From Styela clava (taxonomy: Eukaryota; Chordata; Ascidiacea; Stolidobranchia; Styelidae), in the NCBI RefSeq assembly GCF_964204865.1, contig NC_135263.1:12693426-12757425 (forward strand): a DNA stretch of 64,000 bases. The letters run 5' to 3'. The translations under genes were made by a program, and so were the position numbers. Positions within the stretch are counted from its first letter, which is position 1. Every line of letters begins with the position of its first letter. Below the pieces are notes generated by a model, which made no database searches, was not told the DNA's origin, and saw nothing but the letters and a program-made list of their open reading frames with translations. Positions 41,750 through 61,365 of the stretch are shown here, one piece after another.

Positions 41750-41855
41750 GGACAATGTTTTGAATAAAACAATTTGCAGAAATTAGCTTCACATTCTGCC
41801 TCACCAACTTTAATTATTGTGAATTTTCAGCATATGCTATTGATTTTATTAAATT
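41750..41855 (-). pseudogene. Lipocalin 3'-end fragment a
   Basis: On the minus strand this resembles the last 25-30 codons and 3' flank of the intact lipocalins (compare 57800-57870): aattttcagcatatgct, tcaccaacttt, gaaattagcttcacattctgcc. Degraded by indels, no open frame. Confidence 0.55.
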
Positions 41856-41989
41856 AAACAACACTGATAAAACACGATTAAAAAATTCTTTGCAAACTAA
41901 CTCTAAGAAAAGGTAGCTTTACCGAAATGTTGAGAATGTACAAATAATTTTAATTTGAAGAATACTTGAATATGTCATAATGTTTGTTA

Positions 41990-42200
41990 AATAGAACAAT
42001 TCGCCAAAATTAGCATAACATTTTGCCACCCATCACCAACTTCAATTGATCTGTTTTGAATTTTCAACATTGCGCAGCATTTCCGCTGTTGTACACGCTG
42101 TTAGAGTCTTTCCAAATGAAATTGATTAACATTATCACGCTCGCAACGCGGATCACGTGTAATTAGGTATTGCATAGGCTGTTCAGTTTAAGTATAAACA
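41990..42200 (-). pseudogene. Lipocalin relic b: 3' coding end fused to 5' flank
   Basis: 41990-42075 matches the C-terminal coding end of the intact genes (gaacaattcgccaaaattagc, ttgccacccatcaccaacttc). At about 42080 it passes directly into sequence matching the upstream flank of the gene at 57792-58406 (ccgctgttgtacacg, then cacgctcgcaacgcggatcacgtgt; compare 58432-58510). The gene body of about 500 bp is missing, so this is an internal deletion of one array member. Confidence 0.7.
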
Positions 42201-42539
42201 GTGTTGATATTGCGAAATTGGCTGTGGTGTGTAGGTGTTGAAACCAATCAATTTGTATTCAACGCATTTTATAGGCATGACTTACGGAAATTTGTTATTG
42301 GAAAGGGAGAATATGATTATTACTTGCCTAACAAGATTGTAGTATTTATCGAAGCTTTAATTCTAGGATCTTACTATCGAAAAGGTCTAATTTAACGATT
42401 CATATCGAGTGTTGAAGTAAATCATTGGCTTTTTCTTACTATTCTCACAATATTTTATAGTGGAAAAGAAACTGTATTATAAACAAGTGTTCGTTCATTT
42501 TTAGAGATAGCATTGTGAAATATATATATATGAAGTTTA

Positions 42540-42660
42540 TATATATCTATATATATATATATATATATATTGTAATAGATTGCGGTCTGCGAAAATGTTT
42601 AACGTTTTATATTAGGGGTATACGTACCTATCCATATATGCATATGCAGAAATATATATA
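42540..42660. repeat. (TA)n-rich low-complexity stretch
   Basis: Runs of atatatat at 42545-42570 and 42650-42665 between lipocalin fragments. Confidence 0.7.
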
Positions 42661-42664
42661 TATA

Positions 42665-42765
42665 TTTTTTTGAATATAACAGTTCGTCGAAATTAGCATC
42701 ATATTCTGCCACCCATTACCAACTTTAACTTATTTATTGTGAATTTTCAGCATATGCTCGTGATT
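42665..42765 (-). pseudogene. Lipocalin 3'-end fragment c
   Basis: Matches the same C-terminal end as 57560-57660: agttcgtcgaaattagcatcatattctgccacccattaccaac, then gaattttcagcatatgctcgtgatttt. Broken frame, no upstream coding part. Confidence 0.6.
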
Positions 42766-43343
42766 TTATTCAATCAAACGACAATGGTATACCGTGATTA
42801 TGAATTCTATGCAAACTAACTAGTTAAGTTTTTTTTTCGAGAAATGTTGAGAATGCACAATGCTATTTATTTACTCCCATTTACTTTGTTGAGTTAGATT
42901 GTTTTCCTCAGATTAGTATAATTTTTTATCTGTTTAGTTATTCTCAGTATTTAAGACTATTTGGTTGTATTAAGTTTTCAGTTTGATAATTAATAAATAG
43001 ATTAGAATAGCCTTAATTAATCGAAGTAAATATTGAGATGATTGATTATCAGATTATTTTAGAAGATATTTTGGACTTTCATTTAATGGGACGGTAAGCT
43101 ATACATAGTATTTACATTGAAAATTTGAAAATGCTTATTAATCAATGGTTTATTTGTCATCACAAAAACAAGTTGAAATAAAACAGTTGCAATGAATAAA
43201 TAAATTTACAGTACTAATTATTTTTTTTGTCTGACCGTAGTCGCGAGGGATCTAAATAGGTCTTCACGCTGCGACACCTACAGCGCTGACACAGGTTATC
43301 ATAAAAAGTAACATGAATGAGGGATAAAATATATAGAATATAG

Positions 43344-44699
43344 CAAGGGTGGCTAACACGTCATCGCCAGGTCTCGAGCAGTCGATAGCCTCTTATGTTG
43401 AGTGACTTTTATTGAAATACTCCCTAAAATTGCCTCGAAACAGTTGTGTGTTTTACAACAGGAAGAATACAGTACTTTTCATGTGAAAAATACAATGTAC
43501 ACATACAGATTTGAATTTGAGCATGCCCGATTAAGTACATTATTAAGTAACAAATGCAAGTTTTTCCGCGGCCCAGGTTTATAAATGCAGTGCCGAATAT
43601 CGCGTGTCTAGACCAGGGTTCCTCAAACTGTGTGCCCCGGCACACTAGTGTGCCGTGCCGCCAGGCCTTAAGAGTGTGCCGCAAATTTTTACAAAATTCC
43701 TGAACTTTTTTCTCACAATATTCAACACTGCAACATGATCTTTATCACATTGCAATCAGTAATGGGTGTAGTTCGGTACCACACATATATAGGTTGACCC
43801 CAAAAAACGGAACACAATCCATTTGGAACATGTTGTATGAGTTCCGTTTTTTAGATCACCCTGTATTTATTATTCGATATCCACCGATAGGTGATGTAAT
43901 ATGCCACACTTTTTCTAATATCTGAATATATAAGGCGTTATATGTTCTCGACTCCAAGCCAACAATGCAAGTTTGCTCAAAGAAGTCGATAGACTTTTCC
44001 TAACAAGCTTTTTCAAACTGTCAGAAGTTAAGGGAAACATAAAGAAATTCCTGAAGTGATATCACTTTCCTTTTTCACAGGTAATATTTGGAGTTCTTAA
44101 TTTTACCACGAATTTGCCATGCGAATTTTCTGTCAGTATATCAGTATAACATATAAAATACAATATATATAGTACAACAAAATATTTTCGCCATTAACAT
44201 TTTCATGATTCTGCATATATTAATTCTCTGCACTACTTCCGCAGTATATGAGAGTTATTGTCTCACTCCAAGAGCAGTGTGATAATTTTAATCGCAGTGA
44301 TAGCAGTGGTAAATCAGATACTGAATTTTGAGCAGTCATGTAACATTCATGGTTTGAGAATATTTATTTTTCTCTGTTTGAATAATACTACATGAAAGTT
44401 TTCTTGAAGAATTTTCAAAAATTACCACTCAAAATTAGGCAAGCCCTTGAATTGTATTATTTAAATAAATCTTAAATAAATATAGAAAAATTTACTCCGG
44501 TACAAATAAATAATCAAATCAACATCCTAAACGGAACATAAAAAATACAATTTTGTGTTGATTTCAATGATATTGTGCCCAAAAATGTTTCTTATTGGCA
44601 GCGGTGAAATTTTCTGCATGCCTTATTACGGAGGAGTCGATGGCGATTTATTTTGAAGAGTTTAGTCGATCGCGGCTGAAAGCAGGTTGGCCACCCCTG
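43344..44699. mobile_element. hAT element with perfect target duplication and nested repeats
   Basis: Ends caagggtggctaac and gttggccacccctg are inverted repeats, with further inner pairing (gcagtcgatag and tagtcgatcgcgg). The 8-bp target duplication gaatatag is exact on both sides (43336-43343, 44700-44707). Inside, a second hAT-type end (ccagggttcctcaaactgtgtgcc at about 43612) and a mariner-like hairpin (ccccaaaaaacggaacac and gttccgttttttag at 43799-43856) indicate nesting. No transposase frame. Confidence 0.88.
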
Positions 44700-45157
44700 G
44701 AATATAGAATGTGTCTCAATCGATGCAAATGCAGTAGTTGCGACATTAGACATATTTAAGGTTATTACGCAAAGTAAAACTAAGAATTTGTAACTATCTC
44801 GGAATAATTACTAATAAAAATGCGAGGAAAGCGGAATAAAAATACAAAAAAATTATAGAAAAGACAAATTTGGCGAAATATACAACTAAAAACCAGACAA
44901 CGCAAACACTAACACAAAAATACTTACAGCAAATGCAATTTTTTAGAAATACAACAAATACAAAAATTGATGGAGTCTAATGAAGGTTACAAACAAACTA
45001 AACTAATATATCTATATAATGTCGTTCGCAATAAAGAGAAAAAGATAAAACGGCCAAATCATTTGAAAAAAAAAAATAGCTAACGATCGTTGAATTACCT
45101 ATTAATGTAGCAGATATTATCGGATTAATGTATAAGAGGTTTAATTGTATATAGAAG

Positions 45158-47668
45158 ATGTCAAAAACGGAATCGAAAGCATGGGATAATGTTGGAGGTG
45201 TCGCTTATTCAAATTCGCAACAACAGGCTGACGAGGTTAGTTCTTATTATATTAAACAATTGTTAAACGAATTTTTGTGGGACAGTGATGACAACGAAAC
45301 GAAAACGTTATTTCTTCTATTCCAGCGCTATACTGAATGGGCGCAGAAATATGACAGTGACGTCGATACCCTGAAATATGAAAGTCCACAGAATCTGGCG
45401 ACAGAATTATTAAAATATATCGATAACACTCCATCAACAAACGTTTTGGATGTTGCGGCAGGTAAATTGAGAATTTTCAAATATATCATATAAAAATGAA
45501 CGTTTGTAGCTTGGTTTGGCTTTAAAATGAAAGGTATTTTCGTCATTCTGAATAGATCTTAAATGGGTTCAGTGCTTTCTGCACGTTTCGTGTTACAACC
45601 CCAAAATACGTCTTCAATTCTGAATATATAGGCCTGAATCTGGCACAAAATGCTTGACGAAGTTGTCTGAACAATTTTCAACTTACCAGCCTGAATCCAA
45701 TGTGCTGTCGTGCAATGTCAATCAGTTTATAAATTCGAACGCTAAAAAATTTTCGACATTAATTTTTACTTTTCTCTATGCAATGATATAGCTTTATGAC
45801 GCGCAAGATTTAGACCGAAATATTTAGTTTTATAAATGCATCTAGATATGAAAAAATGTGTTATTTAATTGATTTCTTTCACCCACCAAATATGGTGATT
45901 TATATCGGCACAGGAAAGTGCGGTGAAGTTTTGAAAAAGCTCGGTTACAAAGGAATTATGGACGCAATAGATTTCAATGGTGCGATGCTGGAAATAGCAA
46001 AGGGAAAAAGTTTATACAGGTAGTTACAAAAATCCTGCAAAAATAGAAATCATGCTGTTTTTTTTAAACAAAAATAGATTAAAATCGACATGTCTTGTTT
46101 AAACGGAAGACCAACAAGTTATTCGATTTAAGATATATCTCGAAAGCCATAAGAGGAAGAAGAACTATATATATAGCCTATATATATATATAACCTATAT
46201 ATATATATATATATATACATTGGCATTTCATTGATTGTCTAAACTGATATATATATACATTTGTTCATCAAATATATTAAATAATTCCATAGTAAATATG
46301 GAGGCTTGTCCATGGCACATATTTTTCTGTCCCATTCCCATCCCATCACATAGGATTCCCATTGGAATAAAATTCAATCGAAAATGTTAAATTTATGTTT
46401 AGCGTTCACTAAATAGGACTATATTTACGAAGAGACATGCAAAACAGCAAAACTTACGAAATTTGGTAACTTTATAGTCATAACTATTATACATGTGACC
46501 ATCAGCGCCTTCACAAAGTATATTGTTAATGCTGAATATATTTTGCCTTTTATAGCTAACAAGAGAGCTATGCTCAATTATATAGACACGAAGTCCATAA
46601 CGAAATGTTTCACCATCATTACCCCGAAAATCATACGGTTTTCGTGTCTCATGGGAAATACAAATGTGTGCTGGGCCATCTCATCCAATTGCATGGGACG
46701 TTTCCCATGAGAATCCCAATCCCATGGACAACCCTGTAAATATGATCAAAGATAAATATGATGCCCATTAGAGGAGACAAAATTTACAATTTGTTCAGTT
46801 TCATTGTTGTATACATTTTATATGACGTTTTCGTTAGACGTAGAATATTTTTTATATTGTCAAACTAGCCTATGCGATCTCGTTTTTTTACTTGTCATAT
46901 TGTGTTTCAATAGGAATCACATAGAGATGGGGATTTATCCAAATAAACCAATTCCAGTGGCTGATGGACTGTACGATGCGGCGGTAGGTGCTGGATCATT
47001 TGGTCCTCATCATTTAGCACCTGGGTGTGTTGCGGTAAGTAATAAATGGCGGTTTACAGCATTATCCGAGGGACATTGAGGCGTAATTTTTGTTTGGTTT
47101 AATAAGCCGGGAAATATTTTTATTTATTTATGATACGATTTTTTTATTATTAAATTAATATGTATCTAACCAATACATATTTCAAGCTCGTGCTGAAGAG
47201 GTTGTTTCATCAATGGCAAACTAAAACTGATTTTTCAAATTAGTAATATGATTTGTTCACATGAGGTAACAACAAAACAATATTCACAAAGCGGCTCTCT
47301 AATACATTCTCTGTGAGACATTCTGTTTGAATCTGTTTGAGATAAAACAGATGCTTAAATCTTAAAAAAAAATTCTTCAGTCCCAATTTTCCTATGTCAT
47401 ACTTTAATAAATGTTAACTTTTTTGTTCACATTTTTGTATCAGCCAATCATTCACACTTTAAGACAAGGAGGCGTGGCAATTTTCAATTGTCGGGCAACT
47501 CCCCAGGCAACCGAGTTCAGAAATGCGCTTGAAAACGAAATAGATAAACTAGAGAAAGCTGGAATGATTGCCAAAATTGAAGTGAAAGAAATGACTCATT
47601 ATGCAGTAGAATGCCGGGAAACAGGAAATTCAATGATGTCAAAAGTCTATGTTTATCGGAGACTGTGA
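45158..47668 (+). CDS. METTL27-like class I methyltransferase, 4 exons
   Basis: Exons: 45158-45461, 45914-46019, 46914-47034, 47444-47668 (stop included), total 251 residues; human METTL27 has about 245. The family is a SAM-dependent methyltransferase of unknown substrate. Evidence: the METTL27-type N-terminal block (FQRYTEWAQKYDSDVDTL), motif I VLDVAAG at the exon 1/2 junction, motif II region MDAIDFNGAMLEIA, acidic-turn region DGLYDAAVGAGSFGPHHL, and the C-terminal LRQGGVAIFNCRATP with NEIDKLEKAGM. Phases join exactly. An AATAAA follows at 47710-47715. The exon 2 acceptor is odd: using gcacag|GA drops two residues from motif I (see findings). It is on the opposite strand to the surrounding lipocalins. 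Confidence 0.88.
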
Positions 47669-48550
47669 AAAATTTGTATCAAATGATTTTTCAATGTTCA
47701 TCGACCGGTAATAAATCGCATCTGAGTAACTGTTATTCGGTGATTGGAATAAACCTAACAAACTAGATTTTTGTTATTGAATATGAAAAGTTCTCTGATG
47801 CCAGTGTCCAATAAATTACGTTTCGAGAGTATTACTTCGTCATCCTTGGAAGTCGGGCAAGATTCGGGCATGGGTTTGAAACAGAAAACAAGAATTTTTA
47901 GGTAGTTTAGATAAGATCAATTATTTTCGGCAAGTATATTTTTTGAGCAGCAACATAAAGTGCAATCATGCTAATTTCTCTGGCCTCCAAACGGCAATCA
48001 TGAAACAAATATCATAGCAAAAAATAAGAATGTTTGACACTGGTTGATACCATATTAACTAGTCTAGTCAACGCTTCTCATAAGATATATCAATAATATA
48101 TAAAGTAGGATTTTAGCCGGAAGGATTTTGCGATTGTGAGGATTGTACATTTTGATTTTACTGTCGGTGATTGATAATTTATAATTTCATAATTTTTTCT
48201 TGAAAAAGATAAACAGGAATTTTTTTGTAGTTCTATAGCTTTTTGCACTGAACACAATTTTATCAAAAGGTCAAAAATAGCTGGTTTAGACCAATGTTGT
48301 GATGATTTAATCGATATCAAGGGCATCGGAGATTTTGCAGAAGCGTGGTTTTTTCAATGGTAAAGTTTTGTTAGCCTGCTCACCAACTTGATCACATATG
48401 ATTTTACAGCTAGTAATCAAGTATAATTATCTAAAATCATCGCAGAATCACTCCTGGTCTCTGAAAAGTTAAAAATACACGAATGTTGAATATATTCATG
48501 TAATGACTTTATTATGAAGAACTCTTGAATATGCAGTTTAGTATTGCTGA
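47669..48550. other. No gene seen
   Basis: 3' flank of the methyltransferase and of the first intact lipocalin, whose minus-strand AATAAA lies at 48513-48508. No exon found. Confidence 0.5.
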
Positions 48551-49168
48551 TTATATAGAACAATTTGCTAAAACGAGTTTCACTTTTTCCCATCCACCTC
48601 CAACTTCGTTTAATTTGTTATGGATTTTCAACATTGTTTCTGGACTGAGAACTGGTCCGGGCGTTCCTACATAAATTGTCTTATTTCCAAACAAGTCACA
48701 TCGCAACTTTATAAGATACGAATTCACTTCAGCGATAACAACAAATGGCATATATTTAAAAGCATCCATCCCTGATTCAATCTTGTAAACCGCAGCTCCG
48801 TGAACGTCCTGAAGCACAGCAGTTTTATATCTATTCACACCAAGTACTTTCTCGGTACGAAACGTAGCTGGTCCGATCCGAGCGAATTTTACTTGTGTAG
48901 AACCAATATTTTTGGGTCCATCTCCAGCATCATTTTGAAATTCCAAATCAATAGAAAAGTCGCCATCTTTCTCACTACGGAAATTCAATGTTTCACAACT
49001 CACTACTTTGTAGATTTCTTCTTCTGAATGAACATTTTCATACCATTGCCCAGTGAACATCGTGAAATCGATTTCGTTTTCCAAATTTGGAAGTTCACAA
49101 CTGTGGCAACAAGCCAACACCAAACAGTTGGCAACATATATAATGCCTACTGAAACAAATTTCCGCAT
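48551..49168 (-). CDS. Secreted lipocalin 1, intact, single exon
   Basis: 205 residues, no intron. Lipocalins are small extracellular beta-barrels that carry hydrophobic ligands. Signal peptide: MRKFVSVGIIYVANCLVLACC. The GxW signature is FTGQWYENVH at about residues 39-48. Four cysteines in the mature part (HSCEL, VVSCETL, LRCDLFG, ANCSI) sit as in apolipoprotein D, predicting two disulphides: N-terminal Cys to LRC, and VSC to the C-terminal Cys. Length and Cys pattern are typical of ApoD-type lipocalins. AATAAA follows the stop by about 40 nt. Its 5' half and upstream flank are duplicated at 51937-52800. Ligand cannot be read from sequence. Confidence 0.9.
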   Translation of the reverse strand: MRKFVSVGIIYVANCLVLACCHSCELPNLENEIDFTMFTGQWYENVHSEEEIYKVVSCETLNFRSEKDGDFSIDLEFQNDAGDGPKNIGSTQVKFARIGPATFRTEKVLGVNRYKTAVLQDVHGAAVYKIESGMDAFKYMPFVVIAEVNSYLIKLRCDLFGNKTIYVGTPGPVLSPETMLKIHNKLNEVGGGWEKVKLVLANCSI

Positions 49169-51110
49169 GTTGTATCTTCCAATACCGACTTTCGAATGTC
49201 GAAATACCTACCTTGTATAGGTTTTAAGAGACCTTCAGAAGAAAATTGATGAGGCTTTTTTGAGACAGCAACGGAAATCACGTGTGATGAGAGTTCTCTG
49301 TTTATGATATATACTTGCATATAACGTAATGTAAAGAATGTATACAGCTATTGCATTAATATTGCACAATGTGGATGCAGTATATAGTATCGTGTTGAAT
49401 TCATTCATGATACATGCGATACATACAAACTGTATACCCTGTAGAATATTATTTTGTCAAATGCGAATCTTTGCCTATTTTATTACTCTCAATTTGATTC
49501 GTATCTTGGCTTTTCTTTCTGCAGTTAGTAATCGGGTGCTATTTATTTTTATCTCCCCAGCAATCATTTTTGATATGTTTCTATAAATTGTGATTATCTT
49601 AGGCTAGAATAAGGTAGGTTAGGTTTGTGACCCACATTATCTAACGAAAGGGAACTAACTTTACTGATCGAGTGGGGTATTTGATGTGATATGCAATACA
49701 GCCTAGATATGCATTTGCAAATAACCTTTATGCATGTACTCTCAACCAAATAATAATTATACATTCTCCTTCAAGTGCAATACATACACAGCCAATCGAT
49801 TTCATATGTACTTACACCGGATATTTGATATTATATATGTATTCATTAAAATTACAGCGCATTCGACGGGTTATTCCGACTTCAATTCAAATAAATTTCT
49901 CTTGCGAAACTGGTAATATGGCGATATAGTCTGATGTATAAATTTGGTGATATGCTTTACTTTATTAAATAAAATATCTTTGGGCCTCCAACGAGAACAA
50001 TTGAAAGATTTGTTCATTTTAAATTCTTTAAAAATTTATTATTAAATACTGTGTTTTGTGATCAGCATCTAACACTGTGTTAGTGTATACTAGTTTAGAA
50101 GAGGGGGTGTGCAACATTTATGTCGGACATATAATCAACTTTAGCCAACTGGGCAGCCAGTGCGTCGCGGAAACGGCGAGAGAAGAGAATGCTGCTATCT
50201 CATTGCCTACCAGTATTAAAAACACCGATCAATTGGGAAAGATTTAAGGCAGCGACGAGAGCAAAAATCATCACGTATATTAACGATGCGATCTGACCGC
50301 CTTTTAAAAATAATCTTTCGGATTCTTATTTTTTCATATTTGATGGGGAAAAGTCTGAGGGCATAGAAGAAGAAGTACGGGAGATATTTAGAAGATCTGG
50401 TATAGAAGATATAAAAGTCAGACAATTATGATAAATATTCGTCGTTCTCGAACCTTTGATTATTTATGCTGATAACTTCAATATGGGTTTGATATATCTA
50501 CAACGCTTTGTACGCTTAGTCATTTTTCTATGAATTTGAGTAAATATTTTCAAATAGATTACCAATACCCTCAAACTCGACTTTGCATTTAAAAATAAAA
50601 GCAAATCTAATTCGCATCTTGTCTGTTAAGTAAGAAAAATTTTGCTCAATAATGCTTCAGAATTAAACAGAGTTAATATATGTTTTACGTTCATCAAATA
50701 TAATTTCATTTCACGACAACAATGATAAACAATCTCGTTCACCAATGCGCATCAGAGGAGATAGGCGGATAATGATTCCGCAGGTGTAATTAGAGCTATA
50801 ATGACTCTGGAGGTTAATTGATTTGATGCTGATTTATAGTGTAGTTTCAAGTTATATGTTCAAAAAGAATTCTGTGTAATTGGTATTTTCAAATATCGAT
50901 TGGATAGATTTTTTTTAAACATGCTATTCAAAAAAATAAATAAAAACCAGTTTTGGAGCAAGATAAATTTGATCTACACAAATAACACTATTGAGTCATC
51001 ACAACTTCCCTATACGCGTGGATGATTTTCAGGCAAACATATAGTCTCGATTATATTTATTTCCACAATTTTTACTACACAAAAAATTGATTCTCATGTA
51101 GAACAATTTA
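49169..51110. other. Spacer; part of a duplicated lipocalin flank
   Basis: No gene. About 49190-50430 is the upstream flank of lipocalin 1 and matches 52110-53290 in the same order (cagcaacggaaatcacgtgtgatgag, tgcacaatgtggatgcagta, gaacaattgaaaga). About 50970-51110 has an inverted, permuted counterpart at 53290-53465. Confidence 0.65.
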
Positions 51111-51206
51111 CAACAATACAATTTTTAGTATAGAATATCTCTTTAGAGAATTTATTATGAAAGCAAACTGAATAGGAAGAAATAAATCATTGGCATTGTC
51201 TTTTTA

Positions 51207-51788
51207 TTATTGAGAACACTTTGCTAAATTGAGTTTCACATTTGCCCATCCATTTCCAACTTCTACTAATTTGTTGTGGATTTTCAGCAATGTTTTTGTT
51301 TTTGGGAGAGGGTCCGACGTCGCTACATACACTTTTTTCATTCCGAACAAGTCACACATCAAAACCATTACGTATGCGTTTTTTTCAACAATATGAACAA
51401 TTGGCATATATTTTGGTGCATTCATTTCCGATTCAATTTTATGTGCAGTGGCATCGTTAACGTCCTGTAATATAGCATTTTCTATTTTTTTCATACCAAT
51501 CTCATTTGTAGCGAGAAAAGTGGATGGTGCAATTCGAGCAAAATATGCATTGGAAATTCCAAGGCTTTTATTTTGAGATTTTTCAATCTTTTGAAAACTC
51601 CATTTAGCAGAGAAACTGCCGTTTGCCCCACTCTGGTATTGTAATGTTTCGCAACTCACAACTTTGTATATTGTCTCTTCGGGATAATCGATTTCTTTTT
51701 CTAGTTTTGGAAGTTCACAGCAGTGGCAGCAAGACAACATCCAATATTTTCCGACATATAAAATGATCATTGCTAGAAACCTCAGCAT
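51207..51788 (-). CDS. Lipocalin 2, open but lacking the GxW signature
   Basis: 193 residues, single exon, signal peptide MLRFLAMIILYVGKYWML. Aligned with lipocalin 1, the stretch between EID and EEIYKVVSC is about 12 residues shorter in frame, removing the FTGxWYENVH strand A signature. The other hallmarks remain: FARIAPSTF, YVMVLMCDLFGMKKVYVAT, KIHNKLVEVGNGW, and the four cysteines. The rest of the frame is open and the protein-level changes look tolerated, so it may still be expressed. Loss of strand A and the conserved Trp should disturb the closed end of the barrel. It could also be a young pseudogene. Confidence 0.75.
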   Translation of the reverse strand: MLRFLAMIILYVGKYWMLSCCHCCELPKLEKEIDYPEETIYKVVSCETLQYQSGANGSFSAKWSFQKIEKSQNKSLGISNAYFARIAPSTFLATNEIGMKKIENAILQDVNDATAHKIESEMNAPKYMPIVHIVEKNAYVMVLMCDLFGMKKVYVATSDPLPKTKTLLKIHNKLVEVGNGWANVKLNLAKCSQ

Positions 51789-51936
51789 GTTGTATCCTCG
51801 AGTGTCCTCTTCCTAAAGACTTTCTGCTAAAATGGTTTCTAGGGCAATATGGAATATTGATTAGCTTTACTAATAACATTGAAATGCTTTAGACGCTTTG
51901 CTGCATACACGTAGAGCGTACGTAGCCCCGTACAAT

Positions 51937-52105
51937 TCACTACTTTGTAGATTTCTTTGTCTGAATGAACATTTTCTTACCACTGCACAGTGAACACCGT
52001 GAAATCGATTTCATTTCATAAATTTTGAAGTTCACAACTGTCGCAACAAGCCAACAACAAACAATTGGCAAGATATATAATGCCTACTGGAACAAATTTC
52101 CGCAT
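51937..52105 (-). pseudogene. Lipocalin N-terminal fragment d
   Basis: Reads as the first 55 or so codons of lipocalin 1 (start at 52105, then the C-C-signal region and VSC block) but with frame-breaking changes, and it stops at about 51937, where unrelated sequence begins. Its 5' flank (52106-52800) matches that of lipocalin 1, so this is a partial duplicate. Confidence 0.75.
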
Positions 52106-53290
52106 GTTGTATCCTCCAATACCGACCTTCGAATATCGAAATACCTTTCTCGTATAGGATGTATTAAAAGACGTTCAGAAGAAAATTGATGAGGCTTTTT
52201 TGAGACAGCAACGGAAATCACGTGTGATGAGAGTTCACTGTTTATGATATATACTTGCATAGATCGTACTGTAAAGAATATATACAGCTGTTGCATTGGT
52301 ATTGCACAATGTGGATGCAGTATTTAGAATCTTGTTGAATTCATTCATGATATATGCGATACCTATAAACAGTTTACCCTGTAGAATATTGTATTGGCAA
52401 ATGCAAATCTTGCTCATTTTAGTAGTTTTAATTTGCTTACCTACTTTACTTATTGAGTGGAGTCGTTAATGTGATATGCGCATACATAGTCAACATATGC
52501 ATATGCAACTAACCTTTATGCAATTTCCCTTAACCAAGTATGCATACATGACCATTCAAGTGCTATACATACACAGCCAGTCTATTTCATATATTTACGT
52601 ACACCGGGTATTTGATATATATCATATTTATATTCATTAAAATAACAGCGCAGGCGACGGGTTATTTCGATTTCAATATAACTGAATTACTCTTGTAAAG
52701 CTGGTAATATGGAAGTTGTTCTGTGGTATGAATTTGCTGATGTTATTTACTTTATCAAATAAAATATCTTGATGCCCTTGATGGGAACAATTGAAAGACT
52801 CGTTCATATCGAATTCATTAAAAAAATATTGTTAAATTATGTGCTTTTTGAATAGGTGAAGAAGCTTTCAGAAGCTGTGTTAATAGTATAGGATGACTTT
52901 TTTGTCGGCCATATAACCAACCAACTTCAGAAAGCTGGCTGGGCCACACAAAAGAATTCATTTTTTTTTCATGAACACAACGAATTGAAAAAACTAGCGA
53001 CAACCAGAGCGCTGCGGGAAAGGCAAGAGGGGAGAATGCGGCTATCGCTTTACATTAGAGGCATCGGACAAAACGGCTAAAGATTTTATAGCAGCGACAA
53101 GAGCAAAAATCATTATGTATTTTTACCGATGTGACCGCCTTTCTAAACGTAAACATTTGAGTTGGAATTTTATGTTATATCGGGAAAAATCTGATTGTTG
53201 ACAAGGGATATGGTTTGCCTTGTCGGATCGTGGCCCGCGGGCCGTCTGCTGCATACCCCCGGTATAGATGTAAAAGTCAATCAATCATAA
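52106..53290. repeat. Duplicated lipocalin upstream flank
   Basis: Tandem counterpart of about 49170-50430: cagaagaaaattgatgaggcttttttgagacagc, cacaatgtggatgcag, ctgtagaatattgt and gtcggccatataa occur in the same order. A GC-rich hAT-like end (gtggcccgcgggccgtctgctgc) lies at about 53230. No gene. Confidence 0.7.
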
Positions 53291-53465
53291 TGACGTTGTG
53301 ATGACTCAATGGCGTAAATTTGTGTAGAATACATTTATTTTGCTTCGAAACTGACATTGTTGTAAATTGTTCTATAGGAGAATCCATTTTTTGTGTAGTA
53401 AGAGTTGTGGAAATAAATATAATCGATATTATATGTTTTTCTAAAGATCATCCACGCGTATGGAC

Positions 53466-54190
53466 GGTGACCTTTCTATACCAAAGTCCAATTCAAGTGA
53501 AAGATACCTTCGAAGTTGCAAAGATTTTATTTCGAGATTTCGCATTCTTCCGAAAACTCCATTCAACAGAGCAACTGCTGTTTTTACCACGGTATAGTAT
53601 CGTAATATTTCGCCACTCACAACTTTGTATATTTCCTCTTTGGGATGCACAGTTTCATACCAAGTCTCGATGAGTTCTGTATAATTGCATCGAAGTTCAC
53701 AGTAGTGACAGCAAAACAACATCAAACAAAAGAGCAACGCTCAAATATATGGACACGTTAATCAGAGAAAAGCAGTTCTTACCTTTGACGCTACCGGTAC
53801 CTACGGCGCTTTAAGAAAGCAAGAACTTCGTTACACACCACCGACGTTCGATGAGCACGTGATCAAAAGAACAACAAGAAGAGTGCCAGCATACAAGCGC
53901 CTTTTTAGGTTTTCCACTAGGTGTCCAAGAAAACTAAAACGATTCATAGATCCCTTCCGTGTCCAATGAAAAATAATTAAGGTAATAGCCTTCTGGCGAA
54001 AAAAAAACAATCTTTAACTACTAAAAATTTCAAAGCAATTGGTCCAGTAATCAAAGAGAAAAGCGACTTTTTCATAACGTGTCAAAAAACGAGAACAACA
54101 ACAACATAATATTAAAACGATCCCTAGGTCCACTAACGTGTACAATAATTTATGACATATAGAATTATCACTGATAGAAAAACTCAGCAT
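53466..54190 (-). pseudogene. Lipocalin relic e, split by an insertion in the signal peptide
   Basis: The downstream piece (about 53729-53466) encodes a lipocalin 2-like N-terminal half with a WYE motif (ETWYETVHPKEEIYKVVSG) and then loses frame and ends at the inverted segment at 53465. The start codon and first codons lie at 54190-54165, with the lipocalin 2-type 5' flank beyond. About 430 bp of dispersed repeat separates them. Both halves are therefore one broken gene. VSC has become VSG, so a disulphide cysteine was lost too. Confidence 0.75.
53730..54163. mobile_element. Dispersed repeat inserted in lipocalin relic e
   Basis: Begins with agagcaacgctcaaatatatggacacg and contains aaagcaattggtccagtaatc and acaacaacaacataatattaaaacgatcc, the same words as at 34.1, 55.7 and 57.0 kb. 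Non-coding. Confidence 0.65.
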
Positions 54191-55660
54191 GTTGTATCCC
54201 CGAGTGTCCTCTCCTTAAAGACTTTCCGCTGAAATGGTTTCAAGATTAATATGGCATATTGATTAGCTTCATTAATAACAGTAAAATGTTTCAGACGCTT
54301 AGCTGTATACACTGAACTGAATACGTTGATACGCTGAAGGTGTAGAAATTCATCACGATCCGTATGAACGATCTGTAGGATTTACCACGATGGAGTGACC
54401 TATCTCACTTTTTATCTTGTCTTCTCATGTTTCAATTTATAATCTGTCAAGAGAAGTCTTGTGGTTGAAAAGTTGCTTGGAGTGTCTTATGGCGCTCACG
54501 TTGCTCTCTGCATATACAGCCACAATATGCTTGAACCAACCTATATTCATGTATACGTCAAGCAATTGTGCATATACAGCCTGCTGGGAATGATTATACA
54601 ACCTACTAATATGTTCTAGCATATCAAGTGATGTACATTCACAACTAATAACACGATTTCATAGTGTCATTTCGTGTGTCTGATATTCATTAGAATTACA
54701 ATGCAAGCAACTGACTTAAAATATAACATATATTAAGCTATTATGTTACATTAGTAATATATAATTAAAATGTGTTACTAATAATAGCGACATTATCTAC
54801 GTTATTGAATAGAATGCCTTTTGGTCATTGATAGAAACAAGCGACAGACTTGTTTGAGTTGATTCACAAAAAAATTCTATTGCATACGTTGACACTTATA
54901 GTTTCGGTAAATTGGCTGAGAGTTACAAACCGCCTAATGTACTTGTAATGTACAATTGGCCTCTACTAAAACAACAACAGATTTGAAATGACTCACAGGA
55001 ATATTCTAATATCTTTGATATTATCAAATATGACTCCTAATTTACATTTGTGTTCAAGCTTTCTAACATATAATTATCAGAATATCCAATTCAGGCGAAA
55101 TAATTAATTTTAATACTAATCCTTATGTTAGCGAAGTTATTAAAATAGCCACTAATTCTTTCGAAAACTTCTCACAAATAAGAGATAAACAAGGACGAGC
55201 AATGCTCTATTGAAATGGAACAAATGAGTATTTTACTGAGGGAGTGAATGAAACTATTTGTTTGTATGAGTAACATCTTGTGTTACTGCTTGGAGTACTC
55301 ATGGAGATGCGCTTTATTTCTCGCCTTATGTATGCATGCACTTATCAAGTTAAAATTTTTGTGTTTCAAAATAGATTCTGTAGCATTGCTCTTTTGACAA
55401 ATTATGAAAACGTTGAGTTCGAAATTAGTAAAAACCATAACTTGGGAAAAATGAAGCATGGTTAGAAACAAATCGATTGTACCACTTAAATAAACTTAAT
55501 TTTGATCGCGATTTCTCCTTAAAATACATAAGTGAATTAACGGAAAAAATATGCTCGTGATTACATTTATTCAGTTCAATCTAATTCTGAGAAGGGGTTA
55601 TTATTTTCTGAGAAGTAAGAATACACCAATGATTTTGATAGAATAAACAAGAGAGCCATG
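54191..55660. other. No gene seen; lipocalin 5' flank remnant
   Basis: 54180-54330 matches the upstream flank of lipocalin 2 (51780-51920: gttgtatcc, gagtgtcctct, aagactttc, gcatattgattagctt). The rest is AT-rich spacer without recognisable exons. Confidence 0.55.
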
Positions 55661-55890
55661 CTCAAATATATGGACACGTAGCCAATGGCAATAATTTTGA
55701 TGACGTCATAGCGAAAAAAAAGTAATAACCTTCTGGAGAAAAATTTTATCTTTAACCACTGAAAATTTCAAAGCAATTGGTCCAGTATTCGAAGAGAAAA
55801 GCGATTTTTTAAAAATGGAGACGGAGACAAATAACAATAACAATAACAACAAAATTTTGAAACGATCGTTATGTCCACTTCGTGTCCAAT
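55655..55890. mobile_element. Dispersed hAT-like repeat
   Basis: Contains gagccatgctcaaatatatggacacg, gcaattggtccagtattcgaagagaaaagcg and aacaacaaaattttgaaacgatcgttatgtccacttcg. Same family as 53730-54163. Confidence 0.6.
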
Positions 55891-55919
55891 AAGTAAACAT
55901 GTATTGTTTTTCAAACAGA

Positions 55920-56507
55920 ACAGCTCGCTAACATTAGCTTTACACTTTACCAACATCGATAATTTGTTGTTGAATTTTCAGCATTGTTTCTGGATTAGGA
56001 ACAGGGTCAGGTGTTGCTGCATACACTTTCTTCGTACCGAACACGTCACATCGCAGTATCATTACATAGGAGTCCATGTCAACAATATAAACAAAGGGCC
56101 TATATTTGAATTCATCAATGTTCGATTCAATCTTGTAAACTGCGACACCGTGAGCGTTTTGTATCGCAGCAGTTTCGAGAGTTTTCATACCAAGTTCTTT
56201 CGGCATAAAAAATATAGATGGTCCGATCCGAGCAAAGTTTACTTTATTAGCCCCAATATTTTTATATACATATTCATCATCTACATGAGGTTCCAAATAA
56301 ACTTAAAAGCCGTCTTTCTCACTGTAATAACGCAATGTTTCACAATTCACCACTTTATTGATTTCTTCTTCTGGGTAAATATTTTCATACCAATTCCCAT
56401 GGAATTTTTATTTTCATTTTCTAAATTTGGTAGTTGACAACTATAACAACAAGTCAACGCCAAACATTTGGTAACATATATTGCGGTCACTGTAACAAAT
56501 GTCTTCA
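55920..56507 (-). pseudogene. Lipocalin relic f, full length but broken
   Basis: Start codon at 56507 (MKTFVTVTAIYVTK), then the C-C signal region, but with frame shifts and a stop before residue 75. The middle (56296-55940) is open: NIGANKVNFARIGPSIF, then LRCDVFGTKKVYAATPDPVP. Near the end the codons for the GDGWQN segment are deleted out of frame, giving DVGKV and a stop. At least three independent lesions make it a pseudogene. Confidence 0.85.
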
Positions 56508-57300
56508 TGTTCGACTTTCGAAAATCAGAATACCTCTATTCTACAGGTTGCAAGAGCCTTTCTGAATGAAATCGATTAAACATTATCACTCCCGCAACGC
56601 AGATCCCATGTAATTAAGTACCTGTTTATAATATACTATTACCTATAGGCCGTGCAGCTTAAATATAAACAGTATTGATATTGCAAAATTTGCTGTGGTA
56701 TGTAGACGTGTTGAAATCAACGATTCATACAGAGCAGGGTCGGCAACCTTTTGTCGCTCGCGGGCCAAAATTGAGGGCTGCAAATCTTGGCGGGCCGCAC
56801 AAGGTGCGCTATTTTGGTGACGTCTTAGCACACAAAAATTGAATACCATAGAACTCATCAAATATTTTTTGAATAAATAGAAGTAATAGCCTCGTGAAAA
56901 ATACAATCCTTAATCACTGAAAATTCTAAAGTGATTGATTCAGTAAAAAAGAGAGAAAATCGATTTTTTTCATAACGATAGGAAGAAGAATAATTAATGA
57001 AGAACAACAACAAAATAACATAATAACAAAACTATCCATAAGTCCACTTCGTGCCCAATAACTTGCTCTTCGTGTGTCGATTATAGAATTAAATTATGGT
57101 TAAAATTCACAGCCGCTGTTTTATCTCTAAATTTCAGTGAAGCATCGCGGGCCGGAATATTTCACTCCGCGGGCCATGTGTTGCCGATCCCCGAGTAGAG
57201 TGTTGAAGTAAATCACTGACTTTGTTCTTACTATTCTTACAATAATCTATAGTGGAAAAAACTGTATCAAAGACAAGTATTCCTTCTGTCAATTAATTTA
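56508..57300. other. Lipocalin flank with an hAT MITE at 56735-57195
   Basis: The inserted element has ends gcagggtcggcaacc and gttgccgatcccc, internal gcgggccaaaa and cgcgggccatgtg, and the shared acaacaacaaaataacataataac core. Target duplication is not clean. Flanks match other lipocalin 5' regions (attatcactcccgcaacgcagatc). No gene. Confidence 0.65.
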
Positions 57301-57559
57301 TTTTTATAGATAGCATTGTGAAATGTATGAAGCTGTTAAATGTATTTTGTAATAGATTGCGGTCTGCGAAAATGTTTAACGATCTAAATCAAGAGTGGGC
57401 AATTACTTTCTTAAGTGTACCGGTTACAGATAATCCATTTGATTACTGGGCCAGAAGATCAGAACCTAACATAATGAATTTTCAGAATTGTATATGTATG
57501 TATGTACCTAACTTATATGCCATATAAGCATATGCAAAAATGATTTTTTTTTTTGAATA

Positions 57560-57665
57560 GAACAATTCGTCGAAATAGCTTCATATTCTGCCACCCATTA
57601 TCAACTTAAATTAATTTATTATGAATTTTCAGCATATGCTCGTGATTTCATTCAATGAACGACAA
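57560..57665 (-). pseudogene. Lipocalin 3'-end fragment g
   Basis: Matches 42665-42765 closely: aattcgtcgaaatagcttcatattctgccacccattatcaac, then gaattttcagcatatgctcgtgattt. No open frame. It lies directly downstream of the stop of the intact gene at 57792. Confidence 0.6.
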
Positions 57666-57791
57666 TGATATACCGTGATTATGAATTCTTCGCAAAATAA
57701 CGGGTATATATAGCTTTTTTAACGAAATGTTGAGAATGCACAAATGATATTATTATGAAAAATACTTGAATGAGCATTAAAGTTTTTTTTT

Positions 57792-58406
57792 TCAAATAGA
57801 ACAATTCGCCAAAATTAGTTTCACATTTTGCCACCCATCACCAACTTCAATTAATTTGTTGTGTATTTTCAGCATTGTTTCTGCACTAGGAACAGGGTCA
57901 GGTGTTGCTGCACGTACTTTCTTCATGCCAAACATATCACACAGTAGCAGCATGACATACGAGCCTTCATCAACTATTTGAACAAATGGTAAATATTTTA
58001 ATTCATCCATGCTCGATTCAATATTATAATCTGAGGCACCTTGAGCTTCCTGCAATACAGCAGTTATGAGTTTTTCAATACCTAACTCTTTCCTGGCCTG
58101 AAATGTAGATGGACCGATACGAGCAAAGTCTACTTTGGTAGCACCAATATTTTTATATCCATATTCAACATCTTCATGAAGTTCTAAATGAATAGAAAAG
58201 CCGTCTTTCTCACTGTGATAACGCAATGTTTCACAATTCACTACTTTGTAGATTTCTTCTTCTGGGTGAACATTTTCATACCAAATCCCAGGGAATTTTG
58301 TGAAATCAATTTCATTTTCTAAATCTGGGAGTTGACAACCATAACAACAAGCTAACACTAAACAATTGAAAACGTATATTACGAGCACGGCAACAAATGT
58401 CCTCAT
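57792..58406 (-). CDS. Secreted lipocalin 3, intact, single exon
   Basis: 204 residues. Signal peptide MRTFVAVLVIYVFNCLVLACC; GxW signature FPGIWYENVH; conserved core KVDFARIGPSTF; LLLCDMFGMKKVRAATPDP; C-terminal GDGWQNVKLILANCSI. The ApoD-like four-cysteine pattern is complete. The frame has no lesions and differs from lipocalin 1 mostly by substitutions, so it is probably functional. Upstream flank (58407-58560) carries cacgctcgcaacgcggatcacgtgtgatt, repeated before several array members, perhaps including the promoter. Confidence 0.92.
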   Translation of the reverse strand: MRTFVAVLVIYVFNCLVLACCYGCQLPDLENEIDFTKFPGIWYENVHPEEEIYKVVNCETLRYHSEKDGFSIHLELHEDVEYGYKNIGATKVDFARIGPSTFQARKELGIEKLITAVLQEAQGASDYNIESSMDELKYLPFVQIVDEGSYVMLLLCDMFGMKKVRAATPDPVPSAETMLKIHNKLIEVGDGWQNVKLILANCSI

Positions 58407-58682
58407 GTTCGACTTTCAAAAATCAGAATACCGCTGTTGTACATGTTGTAAGAGCCTTTCTGAATAAAATTGATTAAACATTATCACGCTCGCAACGCGG
58501 ATCACGTGTGATTAGGTATTACATAGGCCTGCATTAAATATAAACAGTATTGATGTAATGTCTTACCAAATTTCTCATTGACGACATGTTACGTGGTAAT
58601 GCGATATGCATATACAGTCAGAATATACATATGTAACAACCCTATATGCCATACATACATTTAGAAAAATAGAAAATTATTG

Positions 58683-58940
58683 TAAATAGAACAATTCGTC
58701 AAAATTAGCGTTTTATTCTGCCACCCACCACCAGCTTCAATTGATTTGTTGTGGATTTTCAGCATTGCTTCTGCACTATAAACAGTGCCAGGTGTTGCTG
58801 CATATGCTTTCTTCATGCCAAACATATCACACTGTAGCAGCATCACACATACTAGCCTATTTCAACAAATGGCATATATTTCAATTAATCCATGCTCGAT
58901 TCAATCTCGTAAACCGACGCATCGTGAGCGTCCTGTCTAT
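58683..58940 (-). pseudogene. Lipocalin C-terminal fragment h
   Basis: Encodes only the last third: QCDMFGMKKAYAATPGT, KIHNKSIEAGGGWQ, LTNCSI. The upstream part has shifted frames around ttaatccatgctcgattcaat and ends at about 58940. Confidence 0.8.
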
Positions 58941-59009
58941 ACAATCAGAATAAGTTTGTATATGTAACTAACCTGTATGCAATATGCATATGCAAAAATG
59001 GAACCTTTT

Positions 59010-59110
59010 TGAATACAACCATTCGCCGAAATTAGCTTTACAATCTGCCTCCCAGTACCGACTTCAATTAATTTATTGTAAAGATTCTGCATATGCTAGT
59101 GATTTTATTC
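59010..59110 (-). pseudogene. Lipocalin 3'-end fragment i
   Basis: A shorter, more decayed copy of the same end (accattcgccgaaattagctttacaatctgcc, gattctgcatatgctagtgatttt). Confidence 0.55.
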
Positions 59111-59250
59111 AATTAAACAACACTGATATACAATGATTATGAATTCTTTGCAAACTAACTATAAGTAAATTAATTTTTATCCGAAATGTTGAGAACGCAC
59201 AAATGATTTCAATATGAAGAATACTTGAATATGCCTTAATGTTTTTTTTT

Positions 59251-59867
59251 TTAAATAAAACAGTTTGCTAACATTTGCTTTACATTTTTCCACCCATCAT
59301 CAAGTTCAATTAATTTGTTATGAATTTTCAGCATTGTTTCTGCACTGGGAACAGGGTCAGGTGTTGCTACATGTACTTCCTTCATGCCAAACAAATCACA
59401 TCGAAGCAGCATTACATACGAGCCTTCTTCGACTATTTGAACAAATGGTAAATATTTCAATTCATCCATTTTCGAATAAATCTTGTGAACTGAGGCACCG
59501 TGAGCGTCCTGCAATACAGCAGTTTTGAATGTTTCCATACCGAATTCTTTTCTGGCATGAAATGTAGATGGTCCGATCCTAGCAAAGTCTACTTTAATAG
59601 CCCCAATATTTTTAGTCCCATATTTCTCATCTTCGTGAAATTCCAAATGAATAGAAAATCCGCCATCTTTCTCGCTCTGGTAACGAAATTTTCCGCAACT
59701 CACTACTTCGTAAATTTCGTTTTGTGGAAGAACATTTTCATACCAATTTCCAGTGAAATTAGTGAAATCCACTTCATTTTGTAAATCGGGGAGTTCACAA
59801 CTGTAGCTACAAATCAACACTAAACAATTGACAAGATATATAATGAACACTCAACAAATTTCCTCAT
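59251..59867 (-). CDS. Lipocalin 4, open apart from a 1-nt frameshift in the signal peptide
   Basis: The frame 59850-59251 encodes 199 residues with GxW (FTGNWYENVL), FARIGPSTF, LLRCDLFGMKEVHVATPDP, GWKNVKQMLANCFI and all four cysteines, but it has no ATG at its start. The ancestral start at 59867 (ATGAGGAAATTTGTT, as in lipocalin 1) is one base short of being in frame and reaches a stop after 15 codons. Either this is a very young pseudogene, a sequence error, or initiation uses a non-ATG codon. The rest is as well preserved as in the intact copies. Confidence 0.75.
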
Positions 59868-60790
59868 GCTGTATCTTTGAACACAAAGTTTTTAATGTCG
59901 AAATACCTCTCTTGTATAGGTTTTAATACACGTTCAGAAGAATATTGATTGAACGCCCCCAAGCCAGCTACGTAAAACGCGTATAAAAAGATTGTTTACT
60001 GTTCACAATATTCTATTGCAAGAACTTTATTAATGTACTTTATAAAATGTATAAATTTGTTGCTTTGATATTGCATACATAGTATAGCGCGAAATGTCAG
60101 ATAACGACGACAAATGATATATGCCTTCCAATAAAATGTTTGTCCAATAATAAATTTTGGTTCGTTTATTGCTCTCATCCGGCCTTGTATCTTGTATTAA
60201 AAATTAAAAAAGTCCTCATTTAAGTAACTTTACATGTTGGGGTGAAGGTGATGGGATTTTAATACATCACAGACAATGCAAATACAGCCCAATTTTCAAA
60301 TAACACCCAAACCATATTATTGTGCAGTCAAGCAGATATTTATACATGGCCAATCAAGTGTCCCGCGCACGTAGCCAATTGATTCCATATGTGCGTAGGT
60401 TTGTATTTAATATCTTCGGCATTTCTTCAAATCACAGCTCACACGACGAGATATTTTTTCTATGAAGGCTCACTGAAAAAATATGATGTTGTTTGCGCGT
60501 GTATGGATAAATTCGATTTCAATCGTTCGCACGTGCATGAATACATAAAATAAAATATCCGTGTCGAGTATTTTTAAATTATCTTATTTTTACATGTGTG
60601 CGCATGATTTTGACCAAATGTTTGACTGATTTGCGTTTTATTCCAAACCGATATTCGCGAATGTATCTATCGTAATATTCATAAACGTAAGTACAGACTT
60701 CCGAAATAGAATAATGTTTTACATAAATATCTTCTTCCGCATAAGGCCGTTCATTAACGGTTTAAACGTCTACAATTTGCTTTATATGTC
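59868..60790. other. No gene seen
   Basis: Upstream flank of lipocalin 4 and AT-rich spacer. The flank begins with the shared aaatacctctcttgtataggtttta word found before lipocalin 1. Confidence 0.5.
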
Positions 60791-60799
60791 CTTAAGTTA

Positions 60800-61365
60800 C
60801 CAACTTCAGTTCATTTGCTGTGAATTTTCAGCATTGTTTCTGGACTCGGAACAGGATCGGGGCTGTTGCATACACTTTCTTCTTGCCGAACATGTCACAT
60901 CGCAGCATCATTACATAGGTGCCTTGTTCAACAATATAAACAAGAGTCATATATTTCAATTCATCCATGTTCGATTCAATATTGTAACCTGCGGCACCGT
61001 GAGTTTCCTGTATTACAGCAGTTTTGAGTGTTTCCATACCGAATTCTCTCCTGGCATGAAATGTAGAAGGTCCGATCCTAGCAAATTCTACTTCAGTATC
61101 CCCAATGTCTTTATATCCATATTTAGCATCTTTATGAAACTCTAAATGAACAGCAGTCTTTCTCATTGTGATTGTGCAATGTTTCACAAATCACAATTCA
61201 CCACCCCATAGATTTTTTCTTCTGGGCGAACATTTTTAGACCAAATGACTGGGTATTTTGTGAAATCAATTTCATTTTTTAAATTTGGGAGAAGCAACTA
61301 TAACAACAAGTCAACACCAAACAATTGGCAACGTATATAATGGCTATTGCTACAATTGCCTTCAT
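60800..61365 (-). pseudogene. Lipocalin relic j, full length but broken
   Basis: Start codon at 61365 (MKAIVAIAIIYVANCLVLTCC). Frames shift after the signal region. The middle (61187-60828) is open with EFARIGPSTFHARREFGM and LRCDMFGKKKVYAT; a missing base then changes the frame at the ATPDP block, and a stop follows the KIHSK region. Clear pseudogene related to lipocalins 3 and 4. Confidence 0.87.

What the first reader, a model, noticed from the sequence alone, without database searches (positions are those of the whole stretch)
41750..61365. Birth-and-death array of intronless ApoD-like lipocalins
Four near full-length open lipocalins and about ten fragments or pseudogenes, all on the minus strand, fill some 20 kb. 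All full-length copies lack introns, although lipocalin genes usually have several. The four cysteines and GxW motif match ApoD-type carriers. This suggests one retrocopied ancestor that then spread by tandem duplication, with many copies dying. Such lineage-specific carrier expansions often serve pigment, pheromone or defence roles, but no ligand can be inferred here.
Basis: partly seen in the sequence, partly recalled or inferred. Interest (0 to 1): 0.7.

Follow-up and report, generated by a model that had tools for sequence, protein, structure and literature searches.

The report
Decaying tandem array of lipocalin genes
A 20-kb stretch of what looks like an animal chromosome holds thirteen intact, damaged or broken copies of a gene for a secreted carrier protein (a lipocalin); it is one of several such clusters in this genome, an ordinary kind of gene-family turnover, and the missing introns appear to be older than the cluster.

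Summary
The array is real: 13 minus-strand lipocalin-like loci between 41.6 and 61.7 kb (4 long open frames, 2 near-full pseudogenes, 7 fragments). Two of the four open copies are flawed: B lacks the GxW block, and D's start codon is out of frame. Only A and C look complete. ApoD-type lipocalin identity rests on profile comparison; Pfam gives only two sub-threshold lipocalin-domain hits. Copies multiplied as DNA: homology runs far into the flanks and is shared with C13, C14 and C4, where a methyltransferase neighbour was copied too. Intronlessness is not peculiar to this array: of 162 places from two capped genome searches, 80 show 150 or more residues in one stretch, about 26 of these being copies of one dispersed repeat. 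Five-exon and one-intron relatives also exist. One ancient intron loss, perhaps by retroposition, plus one intron gain fits the tree; parallel losses are not excluded. Older pairs show purifying selection (dN/dS 0.27-0.41); the youngest intact pair not clearly (0.58, 0.36-1.01). Ligand, expression and lineage-specificity: untested.

The parts
48551..49168 (-). Copy A: intact intronless lipocalin-like ORF, 205 aa, ATG, GxW (FTGQWYE), 4 Cys
   Evidence: dN/dS; AATAAA or ATTAAA 37 nt after the stop
51207..51788 (-). Copy B: open frame, 193 aa, ATG, GxW block lost by in-frame 36-nt deletion
   Evidence: sister L011 on C14 keeps GxW but has a TAG
57792..58406 (-). Copy C: intact intronless lipocalin-like ORF, 204 aa, ATG, GxW (FPGIWYE), 4 Cys
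59251..59850 (-). Copy D: open body, 199 codons from GTG; ATG at 59867 put out of frame by a 1-nt deletion
55914..56508 (-). Copy E: near-full pseudogene (7-nt deletion, stops, 10-nt deletion)
60772..61365 (-). Copy F: near-full pseudogene (several frame-breaking indels)
51923..52105 (-). N-terminal fragment of an A-type unit (residues 1-62); its 5' flank (to about 53194) is also A-like, first block 88.8% over 508 nt
53591..53737 (-). N-terminal fragment of a B-like unit
58685..58935 (-). C-terminal half, frame broken
57576..57641 (-). C-terminal fragment carried in the 3' flank of unit C
59012..59092 (-). C-terminal fragment carried in the 3' flank of unit D
42673..42765 (-). C-terminal fragment
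41990..42073 (-). C-terminal fragment (82% to C) followed almost directly by a 5'-flank copy at 42083-42351: unit with most of the coding part deleted
45158..47665 (+). Methyltransferase-like gene, apparently multi-exon, inside the array span and convergent with copy A; three of its four recognised pieces are also found beside an A-type copy on C4

Best explanation
The feature is a birth-and-death array of divergent ApoD-type secreted lipocalins. Units of gene plus flanks multiplied by DNA-level tandem duplication, and units with long flanks are shared with three other contigs (direction of copying unknown); deletions and frameshifts then broke most copies (shown). The intronless state was inherited from an older founder of a large genome-wide lipocalin family, most simply by one loss of all introns, possibly by retroposition, with one later intron gain on C10 (inferred). 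Copies A and C most likely encode secreted beta-barrel carriers of small hydrophobic molecules, held by two disulphides (inferred from family membership; ligand, tissue and expression unknown).
For: 13 loci in one orientation. Unit homology includes flanks, e.g. 57501-58479 with 58961-59954 (80%, 1002 nt) and 48995-49499 with 51932-52438 (88.8%, 508 nt). Between contigs: C13 1658 nt at 80.6%, C14 1513 nt at 80.6%, C4 1746 nt at 78% with methyltransferase pieces. Lipocalin profile match: 18-sequence family profile probability 97.5, score 77.4 against at most 22.6 in 60 column shuffles; window-only profile (4 sequences) 79.1, score 39.3 against at most 21.5 in 60 shuffles. Weak support: sub-threshold VDE lipocalin-domain hits in 2 of 6 window proteins (E 0.05 and 0.028). 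Intronless kin elsewhere, five-exon kin with GT-AG introns, one-intron kin. dN/dS 0.27-0.41 in 6 of 6 pairs among A-D over the whole length, upper bounds at most 0.61 (0.63 for the mature part of A-B). Tree and clade tests.
Against: No Pfam lipocalin model reaches its cut-off in 6 window proteins, and 10 relatives show no lipocalin hit at E 10 at all. PDB search gives only Per a 4 at E 0.71; with the four-copy profile, Per a 4 (1.1) and crustacyanin (1.5) are mixed with two unrelated chains, one ranked above them (0.29). AlphaFold2 models are unusable (mean pLDDT 35.4 and 30.4). Window copies lack the TDY of the second lipocalin block that several cousins keep. The youngest intact pair, A and L010, has dN/dS 0.58 with interval 0.36-1.01, so present constraint may be weak. 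Nested one-intron genes on C10 mean that intronless rows alone are rejected as a clade (p-AU 0.0013), so more than one intron change occurred. No transcript evidence.
Confidence: 0.8

Rival explanations
1. One reading: one retrocopied lipocalin landed here and founded the array, so the intronless state is specific to it.
For: Coding parts are intronless; five-exon relatives exist in the same genome.
Against: Other clusters and single copies on other contigs are intronless too; the nearest kin of A and B lie on C13 and C14 with long shared flanks.
Confidence: 0.07
2. Introns were lost several times in parallel; the C10 genes keep one ancestral intron and no retroposition took place.
For: Intronless rows without C10 are rejected as one clade (p-AU 0.0013).
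Against: The C10 intron lies at a point that is coding in the two five-exon genes of C1, which favours a gain; one clade of intronless plus C10 rows is not rejected (p-AU 0.495), which does not prove it.
Confidence: 0.3
3. The array is a dying relic: all copies including A and C are now non-functional or nearly so.
For: 11 of 13 loci are damaged; A against L010 dN/dS 0.58 with interval reaching 1.01.
Against: A and C keep full frames, start, GxW and four cysteines; pairs among A-D have dN/dS 0.27-0.41; a neutral simulation from C keeps the frame open in 26% of runs at 5% divergence, 5% at 13% and 1% at 20%, indels not counted.
Confidence: 0.15
4. The fragments are exons of intron-containing lipocalin genes, not dead pieces.
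For: Several C-terminal fragments begin near residue 175 and two N-terminal ones end near residues 62-65, the latter close to the C10 intron point.
Against: Several fragments carry stops or frameshifts; they lie in DNA that is a copy of parts of the full, intronless units.
Confidence: 0.04

Closest known systems
ApoD / bilin-binding protein / insecticyanin lipocalins
   Same: Colinear profile match over 146 columns, GxW block and the first three cysteines aligned; signal-like N-terminus and size by eye
   Different: 23% identity in the profile alignment; below Pfam's cut-offs; window copies lack TDY in the second block; many members of this family are intronless
Arthropod lipocalin expansions (Zhu et al. 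2021, PMC8214410; abstract, part 1 of 2 of the results section and passages seen)
   Same: Large, divergent, partly clustered lipocalin families; the paper counts 49 in Tetranychus urticae and cites 58 from earlier work
   Different: The main text holds neither 'intron' nor 'exon' (0 occurrences); the species of the window is unknown
Tandem duplication of vertebrate lipocalins (PMC8420045; passages seen)
   Same: Gain by tandem duplication, loss leaving pseudogenes
   Different: Chordate lineages; their genes are recalled as multi-exon (not from a call)

Membership tests
Lipocalin (ApoD-type) | Profile similarity to known lipocalins, colinear | tested here: met
   hhalign 97.5 (family profile) and 79.1 (window only), with shuffle, reversed and unrelated controls
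Lipocalin (ApoD-type) | GxW motif after the N-terminal cysteine | tested here: met
   Met in A, C and D (3 of 4 open copies); not met in B
Lipocalin (ApoD-type) | Second block, TDY before the third cysteine | tested here: inconclusive
   Not kept in the 4 open window copies; TDY or TNY in cousins such as L013, L022, L023, L024, L026, L028
Lipocalin (ApoD-type) | Four cysteines in ApoD order | tested here: met
   Invariant in the four open copies; the first three align with ApoD cysteines, the fourth lies beyond the aligned part. Disulphide pairing is recalled, not tested
Lipocalin (ApoD-type) | Pfam lipocalin model above cut-off | tested here: not met
   0 of 6 window and 0 of 10 related proteins reach a lipocalin cut-off; 2 of the 6 have sub-threshold VDE lipocalin-domain hits, 13.5 and 14.3 bits against 25.7. 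A detection limit rather than a defining trait, but told
Lipocalin (ApoD-type) | Eight-stranded barrel fold | tested here: inconclusive
   AlphaFold2 pLDDT 35.4 and 30.4
Retrogene | Intron-containing parent in the genome | tested here: inconclusive
   Five-exon and one-intron relatives exist, but none is sister to the window clade in the tree
Retrogene | Each copy lacks parental flanks | tested here: not met
   Array copies share 5' and 3' flanks, so they are not separate retrocopies
Retrogene | Poly-A tract and target-site duplication of the founder | not tested
   The founder insertion was not located

The most novel reading that the evidence does not exclude
In this lineage a single intron-free lipocalin, made by retroposition of a multi-exon gene, founded a genome-wide carrier superfamily; its clusters were then scattered both by segmental duplication and by a mobile repeat that picked up a piece of one lipocalin cluster and now sits at some two dozen places.
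Probability: 0.25. Interest if true: 0.55.

Novelty: new member of a known kind. Interest (0 to 1): 0.3.

Why it matters
It gives a compact worked case of lipocalin birth and death, with intact, half-dead and dead copies side by side, comparable with sister copies on other contigs. More broadly it shows that absence of introns in one array says little until the rest of the genome is read: here the intronless state is shared by other clusters and is old. The mix of five-exon, one-intron and intronless members in one genome makes the timing and mechanism of intron loss testable in related species. The dispersed repeat carrying lipocalin pieces suggests a second route by which carrier genes could move.

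Tried and rejected
Pfam: no lipocalin model above cut-off in 6 window proteins (two sub-threshold VDE lipocalin-domain hits among other weak hits) and none at E 10 in 10 relatives. PDB search with one protein: Per a 4 at E 0.71 alone; with the four-copy profile: four chains at E 0.29-1.5, two of them lipocalins (Per a 4, crustacyanin) and two unrelated, the top one unrelated. Viral and prokaryote contig scans: no confirmed relatives. Organism identity: not resolved; a genome-size text search and a COX1 search of the genome (0 matches) gave nothing. Palindrome CACGTG upstream of A, C, F and the A fragment at 97-114 nt was seen, but none within 400 nt of B, D, E, L010 or L011, and 11 in the window against about 6 expected from base composition, so it was dropped. 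Idea that fragments are exons: rejected (see rivals). Idea that the window array itself is a mobile element: not favoured, since matches of 50% identity or more to copy C outside C18 lie on four contigs only (C13, C14, C4, C16, capped list). Tree rows are 36 family rows, not all 162 places; partial and broken copies (for example in L012, L017, L022, L028) and L034 were left out. Paper searches on intronless or clustered lipocalins: no listed title or abstract start describes such an intronless array; most listed papers were not opened, and the library is open-access only. The ORF listing was cut in the middle (about 24.1-27.4 kb not seen).
Full report
WHAT IS THERE. The window is 34.6% G+C, has no tRNA gene found and lies at G000:C18:12693426-12757425 in a genome of 376,610,584 bases in 379 contigs. 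Its neighbours point to an animal (inference): a SEL1L homologue in one 856-aa frame at 10218-12788, an aminotransferase, pieces of an FAD oxidoreductase at 18.7-23.1 kb (read as dimethylglycine dehydrogenase by eye; DAO domain above cut-off in one of two pieces scanned), P450 pieces at 30.6-36.4 kb (two scanned, the rest by eye) and a weak thioredoxin-domain match at the right edge (E 0.0053, below cut-off). Several of these are spread over separate frames and so appear to have introns, while SEL1L and the aminotransferase show that long uninterrupted frames occur here too.

THE ARRAY. tblastn with the four open copies finds 13 loci, all on the minus strand; an HMM over 3456 stop-to-stop segments agrees, with some fragments scoring weakly. 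Four are long open frames. Of these, A and C have ATG, GxW and four cysteines. B lacks 12 residues across GxW. D has a 1-nt deletion after its ATG. E and F are near-full but broken by several indels and stops. Seven are N- or C-terminal fragments. At the DNA level units include flanks on both sides: C and D share 1002 nt at 80%, A and the fragment at 51923 share 508 nt at 88.8% plus further blocks, and the left-most remnant at 41.7-42.35 kb joins a 3' end to a 5' flank, as if the coding part had been cut out. This is what unequal exchange and deletion leave behind; it is not what separate retrocopies would look like.

SELECTION. Nei-Gojobori dN/dS among A-D is 0.27 to 0.41 in 6 of 6 pairs over the whole length, with bootstrap upper bounds of at most 0.61 (0.63 for the mature part of A-B). 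Starting from C, a neutral point-mutation simulation (2000 runs per level) leaves the frame open in 26% of runs at 5% divergence, 9% at 10%, 5.0% at 13% and 1.1% at 20%, indels not counted. Younger pairs tell less: A against its C13 sister 0.58 (0.36-1.01), B against its C14 sister 0.58 (0.35-1.08). The eight other pairs (C-D and seven in other clusters) give 0.21-0.45. So the copies passed through long periods of constraint, but current constraint on A is not proven.

IDENTITY. Single-sequence tools are weak: in Pfam no lipocalin model reaches its cut-off for 6 window proteins, though 2 of the 6 have sub-threshold VDE lipocalin-domain hits (E 0.05 and 0.028) among other weak hits, and 10 relatives give no lipocalin hit. 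PDB search with C gives Per a 4 at E 0.71; the four-copy profile gives four chains at E 0.29-1.5, two of them lipocalins, the top one unrelated. Profile-profile comparison succeeds: an 18-sequence family alignment against ApoD, sandercyanin, bilin-binding protein, insecticyanin and Blc gives probability 97.5 and score 77.4 over 146 columns, while 60 column shuffles reach at most 22.6, the reversed profile 13.2 and two unrelated E. coli proteins at most 11.7. The four window sequences alone give 79.1 and 39.3, with 60 shuffles at most 21.5 and the unrelated proteins at most 14.4. The alignment is colinear and matches the GxW block and the first three cysteines. The window copies lack the TDY of the second block, which several cousins keep. 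AlphaFold2 gave no usable model.

THE REST OF THE GENOME. Two protein queries, C and a C5 member, gave 83 and 137 matches (150 of 182 and 150 of 214 candidates scored, so lower bounds). Merged, they are 162 places; 80 hold one match stretch of at least 150 query residues, 61 of those with no stop in at least one alignment, on 15 contigs; 5 of the 80 are in this window. About 26 of the 80, scattered singly and all matching the C5 query at 24-28% identity, look like copies of one dispersed repeat (3 of 3 fetched share it at DNA level); without them some 54 places remain on 12 contigs. Clusters include C1:7.106-7.143 Mb (12 such places) and C5:19.618-19.735 Mb (8). Thirty-four places outside the window match only the C-terminal part and may be last exons or fragments. 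I rebuilt three multi-exon genes. Two are tandem five-exon genes on C1: read by eye, GT-AG borders fit 4 of 4 introns in one copy and 3 of 4 at matching points in the other, whose third donor is shifted. The third gene, on C2, showed four exon matches. On C10 there are genes with one GT-AG intron, phase 1, at the point where window copies read DG-F; of four seen, three splice cleanly and one (L020) runs out of frame. That point is coding in the two C1 five-exon genes, whose exon 2 runs 13 residues further in both.

WHAT THE TREE SAYS. With 36 family rows and 3 outgroup lipocalins, the window copies plus L010 (C13) and L011 (C14) form a clade at 100/99. A pairs with L010 and B with L011, so duplication between contigs interleaves with tandem duplication. 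Intronless rows from other contigs (L013, L014-L018, L023) lie in the same larger group with the C10 genes (82/93). All intronless rows plus the C10 rows as one clade is not rejected (p-AU 0.495); intronless rows without C10 are rejected (p-AU 0.0013). The cheapest history is one ancient loss of all introns, then a gain on C10; parallel losses with retention on C10 remain possible. The deep branches are long and the base is unresolved. Either way, intron loss does not look like an event of this array.

SPREAD BETWEEN CONTIGS. L010 shares 1658 nt at 80.6% with unit A and its upstream flank; L011 shares 1513 nt at 80.6% with unit B and its downstream flank; L012 on C4 shares A's coding end and 1746 nt at 78% down to the plus-strand methyltransferase, three of whose four pieces are found there at 83-88% identity; the first would lie beyond the fetched stretch. 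These look like segmental duplications, not retrocopies; the direction of copying is unknown. Two further short matches lie on C16.

HOW IT PROBABLY WORKS. By family knowledge, not by any test here: secreted lipocalins fold as a barrel that holds a small hydrophobic ligand, and expanded sets in arthropods have been linked to semiochemicals or xenobiotics (PMC8214410: abstract and part 1 of the results section read, passages). A and C are the likely producers. No ligand, tissue or expression evidence exists here.

NOVELTY. Clustered, divergent lipocalin expansions are known; this is another one. The listings of the paper searches show no intronless lipocalin array, in an open-access library only and mostly without opening the papers. 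The unusual elements, many intronless members beside five-exon genes and a dispersed repeat carrying lipocalin pieces, lie outside the window and are only partly followed.

Noticed in passing
L032, L033, L034 (C17:12765500-12775400, C14:16545600-16555500, C9:6158500-6168400): A dispersed repeat, about 97% identical in blocks adding up to 4 kb or more among the 3 fetched copies, carries a piece of the C1 lipocalin cluster, with a 217-218 codon lipocalin frame that lacks a clear start Met, beside retroelement-like integrase pieces (one weak Pfam match, E 0.015, below cut-off; otherwise by eye). By match pattern about 26 such long places exist, but only three were checked at DNA level.
   Followed up: partly
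L012 (C4:17507000-17514500) against window 45874-48977: Segmental duplication of a lipocalin and its convergent methyltransferase neighbour on another contig.
   Followed up: yes
window 178-1388 and 3568-4778: A direct repeat, 98.4% identical over 1.2 kb, flanks the aminotransferase frame; the left copy ends at about the AG in front of that frame.
   Followed up: partly
window 10218-12788: SEL1L homologue in a single 856-aa frame; recalled as having many exons in vertebrates.
   Followed up: no
window 23469-24226 and 39048-39715: Tandem repeats with 158-nt (4.9 copies) and 331-nt (2 copies) units.
   Followed up: no
window 6345-6689: Tc5-type transposase DNA-binding domain next to PHD-finger-like coding sequence near 7109-7297 (for the domain; the PHD-like part by eye).
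   Followed up: no
window 41046-41111, 46558-46593, 53726-53791, 55643-55681: Short dispersed repeat, about 88-91% alike, in both orientations inside and beside the array, MITE-like by eye.
   Followed up: no
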